The translations under genes and the position numbers were made by a program. This document shows, in pieces, positions 55,674 through 63,548 of a stretch of DNA of 64,000 bases. The stretch lies in assembly GCF_001042655.1 (NCBI RefSeq), contig NZ_AP012332.1, positions 558,001 through 622,000 on the forward strand, read 5' to 3'. How positions within the stretch are numbered: position 1 is the stretch's first letter; each line of letters opens with the position of its first letter. The notes below the pieces were generated by a model. The model saw only the letters and a program-made list of their open reading frames with translations, was not told where the DNA came from and ran no database searches. The DNA is from Gardnerella vaginalis ATCC 14018 = JCM 11026 (GTDB lineage Bacteria; Actinomycetota; Actinomycetes; Actinomycetales; Bifidobacteriaceae).

Positions 55674-55781
55674 TTTTAGAATAATTAACAAGTAAAGTGT
55701 CGTATTGTTGCTTTGTTTAGCAGGGATGCGACACTTATTGCTTAGTGGTTGCTTAATATTCGTGTTGTACAAGGGGTAGAA

Positions 55782-58142
55782 GTGGTCTCTAATAAAGATC
55801 GAGAACAGTATGATGCCGACAGTTTGACTGTGCTTGAAGGCTTGGATGCTGTACGAAAGCGCCCAGGCATGTATATTGGCACCACTGATAGTCAAGGTTT
55901 AATGCATTGCCTTTGGGAAATCATTGATAATGCTGTTGATGAGGCTTTAGCTGGGGCTTGTGACCATATTATCGTCACTCTTCACGACGATGGTTCTATT
56001 GAAGTTGCAGATAATGGACGTGGTATTCCAGTAGATGTAGAGCCTAAAACAAAACTTACAGGTGTTGAAGTCGTTTTAACTAAGCTTCATGCTGGAGCTA
56101 AGTTTGGTAATGCTTCGTACAATGCTGCAGGTGGCTTGCATGGCGTTGGATCTTCTGTTGTAAATGCGTTGAGCTTGCGATTGGATGTTGAAGTTGATCG
56201 TGATGGTAAAACGCATCACATGGCTTTCCATCAGGGTCATCCTGGAGTTTATAGTGACGCAGATTCAATGCATCCGTCTCCAGCTTCTCCGTTTAAGCGC
56301 ACTCGCAAGAACAAGCCTACTGAGCTTGAGATTATTGGTACTGTTTCGCCAAAAACTACAGGTACTCGAGTTCGCTATTGGGCTGATCCTGAGATTTTTA
56401 ACTCAACAGCTCGCTTTAGTTATGAACAGTTAATTGATCGAGTTCGTCAAACTAGTTTTTTGGTTCCAGGCTTGCGCATTACTGTTATTGACGAACACGT
56501 ACCAGAAGGCGAATTTAGCGATATTCAAGAGATTGATGTTAGCGCTAGTGATGATGCGAATGCTAATATTAGTGATTTAACAGATGATTTGGCTTTTAAG
56601 GATGAATCGCAAGCAACCGTAGATAATGAATCTAATGAGCTAAATCAATCTGAATATGAATCAGAAGAATCTGAATCTGATGGCGAATCAGAAGAAACCA
56701 CTGCGCAATCTGTTGCAAATAGTGAGTCTTCTAGAGAATTGCAAAATAAGCATCATCCTCGAGTGGTTGAATTTTTGCATAACGGCGGAGTAAGAGATTT
56801 CGTTGATTTTCTTTCAAAGGGTCAAGCAGTCTCAGATATTTGGCGTATTTCTGGCGAAGATACGTATGTAGAGGAGACACAAGCTGTTGATTCTGCTGGA
56901 GATTTACATGCTCAGCAAGTGACGCGTAAATGTGGCGTTGACATTGCAATGCGCTGGGTAAATGGCTACGATTCAACGATTATTAGTTTCGTAAACGTTG
57001 TTGAAACTCCTGGCGGAGGCATGCACGTAGACGGATTCTTGCAAGGATTGACTAAGCAAATTCGTAAAGCTGTTGAAGATAATGCTCGCAAGCTAAAAGT
57101 AAATCTTAAAGATTCAAACACTAAGATTGAGCGAGACGATATTCTAGCTGGAATGGTGGCTGTTGTAACAGTTCGCATTGCTGAACCTCAATTCCAAGGT
57201 CAAACTAAAGATGTTCTTGGAACTGCTCAAGTTAAGCCAATCGTTACAAAAATGACTGACGCTCAATTTGGGGAAATGATTAGCGGATCCAAGCGAGGAT
57301 TCAAAGAACAGTCTGCCAGAGTTTTAGAAAAAATTGTTTCCGAAATGCATGCGCGTATTCAAGCGCGTAAAACTAAGGAAGTTACTCGTAGAAAGAATGC
57401 ACTTGAGTCTGCTTCAATGCCACCAAAACTTTCTGATTGCCAGCCTGGAAACGATGATGTTGCAGAACTTTTCATCGTCGAGGGTGATTCTGCTCTAGGC
57501 ACTGCAAAAGCTGCTCGAAATTCTGCTTTCCAAGCGCTTTTGCCAATACGCGGTAAGATTTTGAACGTTCAAAAAGCAAGTCTTGCGCAAATGTTATCCA
57601 ACAAGGAGTGCGCTGCAATTATTCAAGTTGTTGGAGCAGGGTCGGGCGCAAGTTTTGATATTTCGCAAGCGCGTTATAACAAGATTGTTATGATGACCGA
57701 TGCAGATGTTGATGGCGCGCATATTCGTATTTTGTTGCTAACGCTGTTCTACCGCTATATGCGTCCGCTTATTGAGAACGGGCATGTTTATGCTGCTGTG
57801 CCGCCTCTTCACAGAATTGCTCTCGCTGGAAAGCACAAAGGCGAGTATATTTACACGTATTCCGATGACGAATTGGCTGGAAAACTTGATGATTTGCAAG
57901 CTAAGGGCATTGATTTTAACAGCGATATTCAGCGCTACAAGGGATTGGGTGAGATGGATGCGGATCAGCTTGCAGACACCACTATGGACCCTAGAACGCG
58001 AATGCTAAGAAGGATTCGTATGGAAGATGCTCAGCAGGCGAGCGAAGTATTCGATTTGCTTATGGGTGATGATGTTCCTCCGCGCAAGCAGTTTATTGTT
58101 GATAACGCTGACGACTTCGATCGTTCCAAAATCGATACCTGA
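55782..58142 (+). CDS. parE: type II topoisomerase subunit B (ParE/GyrB-like)
   Basis: 786 residues from GTG 55782 (AAGGGG upstream). GHKL ATPase: WEIIDNAVDEALAG, DNGRGIPVD, GLHGVGSSVVNALS. Toprim: IVEGDSALGTAKAARNSAFQALLPIRGKILNV and MMTDADVDGAHIRILLLTLFYRYMRPLIENG. The EGDSALGTAKAAR form, rather than EGDSAGGSAKxGR, and the place after sigA favour the actinobacterial ParE-like paralogue over gyrB (usually beside dnaA). An acidic Ser/Glu/Asn-rich insertion of roughly 75 residues (about residues 250-325) interrupts the transducer domain. Its gyrA/parC partner is outside the window. Confidence 0.88.
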   Translation: MVSNKDREQYDADSLTVLEGLDAVRKRPGMYIGTTDSQGLMHCLWEIIDNAVDEALAGACDHIIVTLHDDGSIEVADNGRGIPVDVEPKTKLTGVEVVLTKLHAGAKFGNASYNAAGGLHGVGSSVVNALSLRLDVEVDRDGKTHHMAFHQGHPGVYSDADSMHPSPASPFKRTRKNKPTELEIIGTVSPKTTGTRVRYWADPEIFNSTARFSYEQLIDRVRQTSFLVPGLRITVIDEHVPEGEFSDIQEIDVSASDDANANISDLTDDLAFKDESQATVDNESNELNQSEYESEESESDGESEETTAQSVANSESSRELQNKHHPRVVEFLHNGGVRDFVDFLSKGQAVSDIWRISGEDTYVEETQAVDSAGDLHAQQVTRKCGVDIAMRWVNGYDSTIISFVNVVETPGGGMHVDGFLQGLTKQIRKAVEDNARKLKVNLKDSNTKIERDDILAGMVAVVTVRIAEPQFQGQTKDVLGTAQVKPIVTKMTDAQFGEMISGSKRGFKEQSARVLEKIVSEMHARIQARKTKEVTRRKNALESASMPPKLSDCQPGNDDVAELFIVEGDSALGTAKAARNSAFQALLPIRGKILNVQKASLAQMLSNKECAAIIQVVGAGSGASFDISQARYNKIVMMTDADVDGAHIRILLLTLFYRYMRPLIENGHVYAAVPPLHRIALAGKHKGEYIYTYSDDELAGKLDDLQAKGIDFNSDIQRYKGLGEMDADQLADTTMDPRTRMLRRIRMEDAQQASEVFDLLMGDDVPPRKQFIVDNADDFDRSKIDT

Positions 58143-58271: not shown

Positions 58272-58360
58272 TGCGAATGCAGGTTTGCTTCAATAGTGGA
58301 AGTGAATCTGGGATTTTGCATTTATTGATTTTCTTAGAATTTGTTTTATAAGAGGGAAAA

Positions 58361-60540
58361 ATGAACAAGAAAACTGTGATTTTATTATCGACTACGATGA
58401 TGAGTATTGCTACTGCTGCTTGCGCTTTTTGCATGGCTCAAACTGCAAATGCTGCTGATACTTACGTGGATTTTGGCACTTCAACTGCAAAAGTTACTAC
58501 CCCCCCCCCCCAATTGAAAATAGCTCTTCTCAAAAAACCAATTCTTCTGAGACAAATGGCATAAAGTCTTCTGATCCTTCTGATTCTTCTGATAAAGATA
58601 ATATAAAACCTGAAACGAATTCGAAACCAAATTCTAATACAAAGACTGAATCCAAGCTTGAGACTAAGAGTAATGTAAAGTCTAGTATCAAGCTTTCTGC
58701 AAATACTAATGTAAATTCTGTAGTTGAGACTACTACTAAATCTAATGCAGATTCTGTTGTAAATACTGATACAAAGACTGAATTAAATATTTATTCAAAG
58801 TCTAAGGGTGAGGAAGCTCCAGTTTCACCAACAATTTTTAATCAAGCGCTTTTTGCTAGTGGTAAGCCAGCTCCTAATCAAACTCCTAAACCTCAAACAC
58901 AAACGACTGAGCTTAAGGTAAGTCTTTGCTGGGAAACCATGAACAAAGATAATAAAAATGCATTTATTAAGAGCGATAGCGATTTTGGTCAATTGAATTT
59001 TGAGAATTGGGACTTTGGTTCCACGCTAGATTCTTCTAGGAAAGACGTAAAGGACGCGTTTAAGAATATCCAGTTTCAGATAAAAGATACAACTGATAAC
59101 AAGGTAGTAGCAACAACTACTGGAACTTATGATCCTTATACTGCTACTAGTGCAACCAAAAGCTTGGGTAGTTATGATTCAAGCCATACTTATGAAGTGT
59201 CAGTGGTAAACAGCACAGTTCCAAGCCCGTATTATGTGACGTATAACAATGTTGCCACAGATGAATCACAATCGTTTGAACCTGATGTCACGCACTTTAC
59301 GTGGAATCCATCTAAAGGGTCTAATAAAAACTATCAAAATAAATATTTTCGTCTAAATGCCTTGGAGATTGTTTATGCGAAGGATGAGTCTGTGGCAGAC
59401 AAGTGCTTCTCGTATGAGCAGCCAAAAAAGGATGACGGAAACTATCGATCTGATGGTAACTGGAATTTCAAGTATAACAAGGATAATATTTTTGAGCGTA
59501 TTCGTGTAAAAGATAATGCTATTCAGTTCCCAACGGATGAAAATGGCAAACCTAAGGTTCCTGTTAAAGCTGGTTACAAGTTTGTTGGTTGGCAGTTCTA
59601 TGTTGCTAAAAAAACAGATAATCGTCCATACACGTCGTTTGACCGTATGAGTGATGACGATAAAAAGATCATTAATAGTACAACTGTTGCGTATTCGGAT
59701 TTTGGTACTAAGCCATTTATTGATTATCCGTATATTTTTGCGCTGATAAGGGATAACAAGGGCGTTAATACATTTGGCAGTAAACTCGGTACGCAGTATT
59801 GCTCTACAAATCACACATTTGTTGTATTCCCTAAGTGGGAGGTTGCTGGTCATACAGTTACTTTTATGGATGGAGATACTCAATATGCACAAGTAAAAGT
59901 GCAAGACAATAAGTCTATTAGTGGTGATGAATGGACTGACCAGTCTATGCCTGCTAATCCTACTAAAGCTGGTTTTACTTTTAATGGTTGGTATCAGGAT
60001 AAAAATGGAACTGGGGATGTGTTTACTGGTGATACTGTTGTAGCTAATAGTGATATGACTGTATATGCGTCGTATGTAAAAGAAACATCTCCTACACCAT
60101 CTCCTGCACCTACGCCATCTCCAGCTCCTGAACCAACACCAACACCGGCTCCAGTTCCTGAGCCGAAACCAGAGCCAACCCCAACTCCAGAACCTGAGCC
60201 AGATGTGACTCCTGAACCTGAGCAGAAGCCTGTTCCTGATGTTCCTTATGTGCCTGACGATTCGTGGATTCCTCTTCCTGAGATTGTTCCTGAGAATCCA
60301 AGGTATTCTGTTGTTGAGCAGCCTGTGTTGAATCCTGTTCATTCTTCGGATAAGCCAGTTGGGCATTCTGTTGAGCAGCGTTTTAAGGCTGTTGATGCTG
60401 GTGAGGCTTATAGTGCTAAGTCTCCTGCTAAGCATTTGCCTGATACTGGTGTTTCACTGGTTATGTCTATAAGTACTTTGTTTGTGTCTTTGTTTGCTGG
60501 TTTTGGTTTGTCTATGTTCAAGTCTCGCCGCAAGCATTAA
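58361..60540 (+). CDS. LPDTG-anchored surface protein, phase-variable; OFF frame as sequenced
   Basis: ATG 58361 with AGAGGGAAAA. Signal peptide MNKKTVILLSTTMM...AQTANA-ADT, then a 12-C tract at 58500-58511. In the frame from the ATG translation ends at TAA 58562-58564 after 67 residues. Reading the frame that reaches TAA 60540 without any stop needs +1 C (13) or -2 (10), giving about 726 residues: Ser/Thr/Lys/Asn-rich stalk, a unique central domain, a Listeria-Bacteroides-type repeat (FMDGDTQYAQV..., GFTFNGWYQDKNGTGDVFT), a Pro-Thr/Glu-rich wall-spanning part and LPDTG at 60436-60450 with a membrane helix and RRKH end. It would be attached to the wall by sortase. The gene is continuous in its other frame, so it is a contingency gene rather than a dead pseudogene, though a sequencing slip in the tract is possible. 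Confidence 0.85.
58500..58511 (+). repeat. poly-C tract (12 C), phase-variation switch of the first LPDTG gene
   Basis: Twelve consecutive C in an otherwise AT-rich gene, about 46 codons after the start and just behind the signal peptide. Changes of one base shift the downstream frame. Confidence 0.9.
60193..60540 (+). repeat. 3' cassette copy A (duplicate of 63201-63548)
   Basis: Encodes the Pro-rich end, the EPDVTPEPE region and the LPDTG/membrane anchor. Aligned without gaps to 63201-63548 at a constant 3,008-nt offset with about 16 differences by my count; the last ~117 bp are identical. Confidence 0.85.
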
Positions 60541-61353: not shown

Positions 61354-63548
61354 ATGGGTAAGAGAACTAATATAATTTTGACTAGCGCTATGATGGGTAT
61401 TGCTACTGCTGCGTGTGCTTTTTGCGTAGCGCAAAGTGCGAATGCTGCTGAAACTTCAGCTGCTTCTTCTGGTGTTAATACGTCTGTAAATTCTTCTGCC
61501 GCAACTTCTAATACACCCGGGGGGGGGCTTTAGATAGCACTTCCTCAGAACATGCTAAATCTGTTGATAAAGATAGAAGTGCTCCTGAGGAAACGCCTGT
61601 ATTTGATACTGCTGCTAACTATAAGAAAGTTGGCGAAGATGATGACCAAATTAAGTACACTTATGTGAATAATACTACTAAAAAAATCACAAATCCATTT
61701 CCAGATGTAATTTCAGATGACGAGATTGAAAAAGCGTTTAAGAATAAAGAAACTTCTGTAGAAAAAATTTATTTTAAGCCTGCTGCTACTTCAGATAATC
61801 CTAATCCCAAAAGTGAGATTGTTAAAAATAGATTCTTAAAGAATGTTGATGGAGAATATATTGTTTACAAAGTATATAAAAATGATTATGTTTCTGGCAA
61901 AAATGAGTCACAGATTACTTCATCTCAGGGTGTGTCTGTAAATGGTTCTATATCAAAAGATGGTAGTATTTATGCAGGCTCTGAACAAACAATTACAGCT
62001 TCTGCTGAACCAGTTGATTTTGAATTAAATGGTTATACTGTTGCAAAGAATTGTAAAAAGTCTATTGATATTCGCTCTGAGTATGCTTTCAAAAATTACT
62101 TATATTTAAAACTCACGTATAAGTATAAGTTTAATTTTGAAAGATTTAAATTTGTGTATGTTTATTGTCATCAGGCTGGGTGCAATACAAGTTATAATCG
62201 TTATTTTTCTGCAGCAGATGCGCAGTTCCATTTTGTGGATGATTTGCAATATAGATCTAAGAATCCAAATGGGGTAGATAAAGATGGTAAGTTAAAGCAG
62301 CGAGGAAATTCTGACACTCATCCATCTTTAACTGATGCAGACAAGAAGAAGGGTACTCTAATATCGTCGGTTCCATTTTACGAAATTGCGGGATTGGCGG
62401 ATATTTCTGGTACTTCTGCTGTAATAACTGATAAAGCAGCCTTCTATCGAACAGATAGTGGTGACGGTAAGACATCTATTTTGTCTTTTGATAAAGATCC
62501 AGATATAAAATATGCGAAGCGTCCTATACTTACTGATCTTACTGGTAAGAATATTCCAGGATACGTGTATTGGGATAATGACATTGATAAGCCTCAGAAC
62601 AAGAATCATGAGTTTGCGAACGATAAGGATACTAAGGAAGATCCTGGTAATCACTATCTTTCCTTTGCTTATGAAATGAAGGATGGCAAGCCTGTTAAGC
62701 GTCTTACACGTAAACATTATTATGTTACTTTTAGAGCAATTCCTACGCAGTTGGTCGTTAAGTATAAGAAGTCTGATGGAACATTTGAATCAAATGCAAA
62801 GTACGAGCTTTTAGATTCTGGTAATGCGAAAATTGGCAATGAATTTGCTTCTACGAGTGGTGATGTTACTACAAGCAACAAAGAAGCTTTAGTTACTATG
62901 ATGAAATCGTCTAGTACTACTTTCCTTAAAAGTTTTACTGGCTACTTATCTAACGGTGCTGTATATTTGTTACCTGGAAAATATACAGTAAAGCCAAATG
63001 TTAAAGCGCCTGAAGGGTACGAGTGGGTTGTAGATTCAAATAAACAGGATTCTAAAACTAGTGCAGATATTAATATCGGACTTCAAACTGGAAAGACTAC
63101 TGCTATACAATTTATTACTTTTGTATTGAAGAAGAAGCCAACTCACCCTATTCCTACGCCATCTCCAACTCCTGAACCTACACCAACTCCGACTCCAGCT
63201 CCTGAGCCAGATGTGACTCCTGAACCTGAGCCAATACCAGTTCCTGATGTTCCTAATGTGCCTGACGATTCGTGGATTCCTCTTCCTGAGATTGTTCCTG
63301 AGAATCCAGAGTATTCTGTTGTTGAGCAGCCTGTGTTGAATCCTGTTCATTCTTCGGATAAGCCAGTGGAGCATTCTGTTGAGCAGAGTTTTAAAGCTGT
63401 TGATGCTGGTGAGGATTACAATGCTAAGGCTCCTGCTAAGCATTTGCCTGATACTGGTGTTTCACTGGTTATGTCTATAAGTACTTTGTTTGTGTCTTTG
63501 TTTGCTGGTTTTGGTTTGTCTATGTTCAAGTCTCGCCGCAAGCATTAA
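61354..63548 (+). CDS. LPDTG-anchored surface protein, phase-variable; OFF frame as sequenced
   Basis: ATG 61354 with AAGAGG (not the earlier frame start at 61309). Signal peptide MGKRTNIILTSAMMGIATAA...AQSANA-AE resembles the first gene. A 9-G tract (61519-61527) after ACACCC is followed in this frame by CTT TAG (stop 61531-61533, 59 residues). The other frame is open to TAA 63548 and is joined by +1 G (10) or -2 (7), giving about 731 residues: a unique N-terminal region, a SpaA/Cna-B-like domain near the end (LVVKYKKSDGTFESNAKYELLDS, YLLPGKYTVKPNVKAPEGYEW), a Pro-rich part and LPDTG at 63444-63458. The same offset as in the first gene. Sortase substrate of the cell wall if switched on. Confidence 0.85.
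61519..61527 (+). repeat. poly-G tract (9 G), phase-variation switch of the second LPDTG gene
   Basis: Nine G after CCC, directly followed by CTTTAG: with 9 G the frame stops at once, with 10 or 7 G it enters the long ORF. Confidence 0.88.
63201..63548 (+). repeat. 3' cassette copy B (duplicate of 60193-60540)
   Basis: The second copy of the anchor-region cassette, in the same orientation, about 95 percent identical. Direct repeats this close could recombine and delete the DUF3791 pair. Confidence 0.85.

What the first reader, a model, noticed from the sequence alone, without database searches (positions are those of the whole stretch)
58361..60540. Contingency gene: poly-C12 tract switches an LPDTG surface protein
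Seen: ATG, signal peptide and 12 consecutive C, then a stop 17 codons on in the present frame, while another frame is open from the tract to the anchor at 60540 with no stop. Adding one C or removing two joins them. Placement right after the signal peptide is typical for phase-variable surface genes; this tract would make the protein an ON/OFF antigen or adhesin. A missing base in sequencing is a rival explanation, but a 12-C run in an AT-rich gene is itself a slippage-prone element.
Basis: partly seen in the sequence, partly recalled or inferred. Interest (0 to 1): 0.88.

Follow-up and report, generated by a model that had tools for sequence, protein, structure and literature searches.

The report
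Slippage switch in a Gardnerella surface-protein gene
A run of twelve identical bases near the start of a surface-protein gene in a vaginal Gardnerella bacterium appears to switch the protein on or off by copying slips; it is a new example of a switch type already reported in this genus.

Summary
Window 58500-58511 is a pure run of 12 C, 46 codons after an ATG (58361) with a signal-peptide-like start. The present frame stops 16 codons after the run; another frame is open for 675 codons to an LPDTG anchor ending at 60540. The run is not chance: all 24 C/G runs of 8 or more in the genome are at least 9 long, against 0.3-2 expected. Three clear orthologues in other species keep a C run at this place; two are frame-continuous, one is broken. 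Public proteins of the family show several frame states: of 86 that could be placed, 57 exported-frame, 23 out-of-frame through the run, 6 starting downstream. The gene is the first of four tract-bearing LPDTG genes between two topoisomerase genes; three are broken, one continuous. Best reading: a translational phase-variation locus driven by replication slippage. Homopolymer slippage is already published for Gardnerella (PMC11287997) and for B. breve pili (PMC9187656), so this is a new member of a known kind. Switching within a clone is not shown for this tract.

The parts
55749..58142 (+). upstream neighbour: type II topoisomerase subunit B gene (gyrB/parE type)
   Evidence: NCBIfam (PRK05644 over its cut-off; gyrB and parE equivalog models under theirs)
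58350..58356 (+). Shine-Dalgarno-like AAGAGGG before the ATG
   Evidence: read by eye
58361..58564 (+). reading frame as it stands: ATG, signal peptide, tract, early stop TAA 58562-58564
58361..58453 (+). signal-peptide coding part (31 residues, ending in an A-x-A motif); N-terminus shared with paralogues and orthologues
   Evidence: cleavage motif judged by eye, no predictor run
58500..58511 (+). poly-C run, 12 C: the slippage element
58513..60540 (+). open frame after the tract (675 codons plus stop), searched as a separate piece
58864..60075 (+). ectodomain piece that was folded: a part resembling Cna-B/pilin-like domains, then an InlB B-repeat
   Evidence: mean pLDDT 71
59851..60069 (+). 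InlB B-repeat (PF09479 Flg_new)
60436..60450 (+). LPDTG sorting motif, then hydrophobic stretch and SRRKH tail
61354..63548 (+). second LPDTG surface gene, also frame-broken; its end is 94.6% identical to the first over 367 bases
61519..61527 (+). poly-G run, 9 G, of the second gene

Best explanation
This is a contingency gene of a Gardnerella species. Replication slippage in the C run just after the signal-peptide coding part changes the run length and so decides whether ribosomes starting at 58361 go on into the 675-codon ectodomain and LPDTG anchor. In the continuous state a sortase-anchored InlB-B-repeat protein would be displayed; in the other states translation stops early. In the assembly at hand the gene is broken. 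It is the first of four such genes in one chromosomal interval, each with its own run, so cells could show different sets of these proteins. Shown: the anatomy, the conserved tract, natural alleles in different frame states, no MutS match. Inferred: slippage rate, reversibility, surface display, and a role in adhesion or immune escape.
For: Anatomy. Runs far above chance; CCC is 1 of 164 proline codons in six window reading frames, the tract itself left out. Of five genomes with a clear orthologue, the window's own included, four could be judged at the tract: all four have a C run of 10 to 12; two are continuous, two broken; the fifth (G110) could not be judged. A more distant relative in G077, matched in pieces, also has a C run there and is broken. 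Public proteins: of 141 retrieved (one search listed 120 of 230 hits, one search added 21), 57 run in the exported frame, 23 enter the tract from an out-of-frame start, 6 start downstream, 17 belong to a paralogue, and 38 have another N-terminus with no proline run in the 70 residues printed (14 of the first 86 placed by eye). Coding tracts in fetched stretches of ten genomes: 5 continuous of 15 clean cases, from seven genomes. No MutS match in the genome; four sortase matches.
Against: No reads, colonies or protein data for this tract. Frame states of public gene calls may include homopolymer miscounts, and gene callers choose starts mechanically. The tools hold one genome per species, so variation between close strains rests on gene calls. 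In the 53 exported-frame proteins without an interrupted tract, the proline run at the tract has one single length; in the 23 out-of-frame ones 21 share one length and two differ, so the length range seen is narrow. The share in the exported frame is 57 of 86 in public calls against 5 of 15 in genomes; callers may favour the exported frame.
Confidence: 0.88

Rival explanations
1. The deposited run length is a sequencing or assembly miscount, and the gene is continuous in the sequenced strain.
For: Runs of 12 are hard to count; a B. breve study found annotated tract lengths that differ from deep-sequenced ones (PMC9187656, passages).
Against: It explains neither why the run exists nor why it is kept in other species, nor the broken states of further tract genes. 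It could still be true of this one allele without touching the contingency reading.
Confidence: 0.1
2. The gene is a decayed pseudogene, and the run is an accident.
For: Broken frame in this assembly.
Against: 675 codons stay open after the run; an 85% identical orthologue is continuous; 57 public proteins run in the exported frame.
Confidence: 0.02
3. The run acts by transcriptional slippage or ribosomal frameshifting, so that some full-length protein is made from every tract length.
For: Long homopolymers can slip in transcription (general knowledge; not tested here).
Against: It does not by itself explain alleles of different frame state or different tract lengths; it may act on top of DNA slippage.
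Confidence: 0.08

Closest known systems
Homopolymer-tract genes of Gardnerella spp. (Garcia et al. 2024, PMC11287997; abstract, sections 11 and 12, and passages read)
   Same: Same genus; tracts of 8 or more tied to surface proteins with InlB B-repeats and LPXTG sites; length difference between colonies shown by Sanger for one GA-module gene in strains 14018 and AKK101.
   Different: In the parts read, this gene, its array and the position of the tract just after the signal peptide are not described; the supplement was not readable here.
B. breve UCC2003 pilus G-tract switches bbr_0113 and bbr_1889 (PMC9187656; abstract, section 21 and passages read)
   Same: Family Bifidobacteriaceae (recalled); an intragenic G-tract splits the first gene of a sortase-dependent pilus cluster into two frames; slippage measured by maximum depth sequencing.
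   Different: There the switch governs a pilus cluster with a dedicated sortase gene; here a stand-alone surface gene with a C tract, and the four sortase matches lie elsewhere.
Slipped-strand mispairing in Gardnerella sialidase nanH3 (Kurukulasuriya et al. 2021; not held; seen only as cited in PMC11868660 and PMC10187134)
   Same: Slipped-strand switching in a Gardnerella gene, by the title.
   Different: A sialidase, not this surface-protein family; text not read.
Listeria inlA 5' poly-A tract (PMC2831843, abstract read)
   Same: Homopolymer at the 5' end of a surface-protein gene that inactivates it by frameshift.
   Different: Another phylum and another tract base; internalins carry leucine-rich repeats (recalled), not found here.

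Membership tests
Translational contingency locus (homopolymer slippage) | Pure homopolymer of 8-9 or more inside the coding region | tested here: met
   12 C at 58500-58511, 139 bases after the ATG
Translational contingency locus (homopolymer slippage) | Start codon and main frame lie on either side of the tract, in frames set by its length | tested here: met
Translational contingency locus (homopolymer slippage) | Natural alleles in more than one frame state | tested here: met
Translational contingency locus (homopolymer slippage) | Frequent reversible switching within a clone | not testable with these tools
   no reads; length difference between colonies shown in print for another Gardnerella tract
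LPXTG sortase-anchored protein | Signal peptide, LPxTG, hydrophobic stretch, basic tail | tested here: met
   by sequence; no dedicated signal-peptide predictor was run
LPXTG sortase-anchored protein | Sortase in the genome | tested here: met
   4 matches to PF04203
InlB B-repeat protein | B-repeat domain above the curated cut-off | tested here: met
Internalin | Leucine-rich repeats | tested here: not met
   no LRR family among Pfam hits of the 675-aa piece; the NCBIfam internalin_H model matches at 26.6 bits against a cut-off of 1050
B. breve-type pilus switch | Tract gene heads a pilus cluster with its own sortase | tested here: not met
   sortase matches at about 21, 484, 1193 and 1326 kb, the tract at 616 kb

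The most novel reading that the evidence does not exclude
The interval between the topoisomerase B and A genes is a surface-coat generator of Gardnerella: a group of LPXTG genes that share a signal peptide and, in part, an anchor but differ in the middle, each with its own slippage run whose frame state is set independently and at random, giving many surface combinations per clone; a second set of surface genes is tuned by runs in promoter spacers.
Probability: 0.4. Interest if true: 0.55.

Novelty: new member of a known kind. Interest (0 to 1): 0.4.

Why it matters
Gardnerella is tied to bacterial vaginosis, and clonal heterogeneity is a proposed reason why isolates behave differently. Surface proteins that flip independently would confuse antibody, vaccine and adhesion work done on one clone, and a genome in which three of four such genes are broken will hide them from annotation and proteomics. 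The locus is a ready test case: it is compact, the tract positions are known, and the same strains can be read by deep sequencing.

Tried and rejected
Strand polarity. In the window's genome 23 of 24 runs have G on the GC-skew leading strand and the window run is the only exception, which looked like a replication rule. Over five genomes it is 90 of 103, and short runs show the same graded trend (67, 73, 80 and 88% for lengths 3 to 6). It is explained at least in part by strand composition; rejected as a special feature. For G106 the count was 20 of 22 with whole stretches and 19 of 22 with 6-kb flanks. One search covered 11 further genomes and its list was cut; four of them (G106, G058, G100, G036) were used here, while G025, G077, G105 and G107, also listed in full, were not.

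A three-state switch. Twenty-three public gene calls enter the tract in another frame, most of them from an ATG about 51 bases before it. That ATG overlaps the codons for the signal-peptide cleavage motif and has no Shine-Dalgarno sequence by eye, so I take it as a gene-caller artefact; not excluded.

Interrupted, 'locked' tract. Four public proteins (P0053, P0054, P0058, P0060) have Pro-Pro-Leu at the tract, and all four are in the exported frame. Their DNA was not seen, so this is only suggestive. G110 first seemed to lack the tract; in fact it could not be judged.

Rows dropped. One search printed 21 tracts in stretches of ten genomes (none in those of G108 and G110). I dropped 3 judged non-coding, 1 that runs off its stretch (G077) and 2 whose upstream side could not be read (G077, G105), leaving 15 from seven genomes. 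One of the 15 (G105) has another signal-peptide type, and not all stretches are proven to be the same chromosomal interval.

Full report
What is there. The window holds a 12-C run at 58500-58511. Upstream, an ATG at 58361 behind AAGAGGG opens a frame with a signal-peptide-like start. The present frame runs 16 codons past the tract and stops at 58562-58564. A different frame is open for 675 codons after the tract and ends at 60540 with LPDTG, a hydrophobic stretch and a basic tail.

More than chance. The window's C/G runs fall off as 365, 61, 7 and 2 for lengths 3 to 6; then come only one run of 9 and one of 12. In the 1,667,406-base genome there are 24 runs of 8 or more, and all 24 are 9 or longer; 0.35 (order-1) to 2.1 (order-0) of that length are expected from window composition. 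CCC is 1 of 164 proline codons in six window reading frames, so codon usage does not make the run.

Kept in other species. The post-tract piece was searched in 112 genomes of the genus as the tool defines it; 65 match, the window's own included, most of them over a small part of the piece. Four other genomes hold a clear orthologue (85, 79, 75 and 71% identical). Three of them have a C run at the same place with differing flanks; the fourth could not be judged. Of the three, two are frame-continuous and one is broken. A more distant relative in G077, matched in pieces at 37-58% identity, also has a C run there and is broken. By equal contig length, two of the genomes are Gardnerella greenwoodii 00703Dmash and Gardnerella vaginalis KA00225. 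The window's own strain is not named by any tool; the closest public proteins are labelled Gardnerella vaginalis, and the genome length recalls G. vaginalis JCM 11026/ATCC 14018, from memory only.

Natural frame states. Two protein searches gave 141 distinct public proteins (one search listed 120 of 230 hits; one search added 21). I sorted them by N-terminus: 53 in the exported frame by script and 4 more by eye; 19 entering the tract from an out-of-frame start by script and 4 more by eye; 6, by eye, starting downstream of the tract; 17 of a paralogue; 38 with another N-terminus and no proline run in the 70 residues printed, one of them named as Fannyhessea vaginae (P0119). The same gene family thus exists in several frame states. 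Gene callers and assembly errors blur the ratio.

The array. L038 (615,000-634,000 of the genome) shows four tract genes in one direction between the topoisomerase B gene and a topoisomerase A gene on the other strand. The first three are broken, the fourth is continuous, and all four end in LPDTG. The group is not contiguous: a SocA/Panacea-domain gene and an MFS transporter gene lie between the second and the third. Genes 1 and 2 share about 80% identity over 118 bases at the start and 94.6% over 367 bases at the end, with a further 56-base match (91%) just before that; nothing else matched at E 0.001. Groups of tract genes occur in other species: four in G036 and at least three clean cases in G077. 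Over fetched stretches of ten genomes, 5 of 15 clean coding tracts are continuous, the one in three expected if frame states were random; public gene calls give 57 of 86, which does not fit that figure unless callers favour the exported frame. Independence of the genes was not tested.

Known or new. Listings that paired Gardnerella with phase-variation or slippage terms or with InlB B-repeat led to PMC11287997. It reports abundant tracts of 8 or more across Gardnerella, tied to surface proteins with InlB B-repeats and LPXTG sites, and shows 9/10 length variation between colonies for one GA-module gene (section 11). In B. breve an intragenic G-tract switch in pilus genes was measured by deep sequencing (PMC9187656; abstract, section 21 and passages). 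Slippage in nanH3 is cited but that paper is not held. For another surface protein, Cna, many ATCC 14018 cells were not stained by antibody, which the authors link to phase variation (PMC12095359; abstract and passages). In the parts read, this gene and its array are not described; supplements were not readable. Hence: new member of a known kind.

A point for that literature. PMC11287997 places about 70% of G/C tracts upstream of predicted ORFs. Part of this can be an annotation effect: in a broken allele the caller starts after the tract, as in the 6 downstream starts here. Other upstream tracts look like promoter-spacer runs (by eye).

Noticed in passing
G000: L031, L033, L035, L045, L050 (51.7, 244.6, 301.9, 1266.3, 1529.2 kb): Five intergenic G runs share one flank, TTGACTTTTTTAAAC-[G9-11]-TATGTTAATAA, a run in the -35/-10 spacer by eye. 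Each stands 41-129 bases before an ORF for a protein with a shared signal peptide (MMNKKAIAAFAAGATLLAGFAMATPA) and a similar C-terminus, without Pfam hits. The same flank occurs six times in G106. Possible phase-variable promoter family.
   Followed up: partly
G000: 156163, 402040, 475333, 1202031, 1249766: Five further intergenic runs sit directly before a hexamer beginning with TA and 8-10 bases after a TTGxxx hexamer (by eye; not tested against shuffles).
   Followed up: no
G000: 1148510 (L042): G run between the arms of an inverted repeat AGCCTA...TAGGCT followed by T (by eye): a run in a possible terminator loop.
   Followed up: no
G000: 1101795, 1305822, 1508014: Three more coding-type tracts outside the array, with 771, 784 and 1088 open codons after the run; the first is continuous, the other two broken.
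   Followed up: partly
P0062-P0120: The ectodomain (about 59-76% identical) occurs on proteins with quite different N-termini and no visible tract, one of them named Fannyhessea vaginae (P0119), which suggests exchange among vaginal bacteria.
   Followed up: no
L038 6694-7803 (-), genome about 621.7-622.8 kb: A SocA/Panacea-type antitoxin domain gene lies inside the array interval.
   Followed up: no
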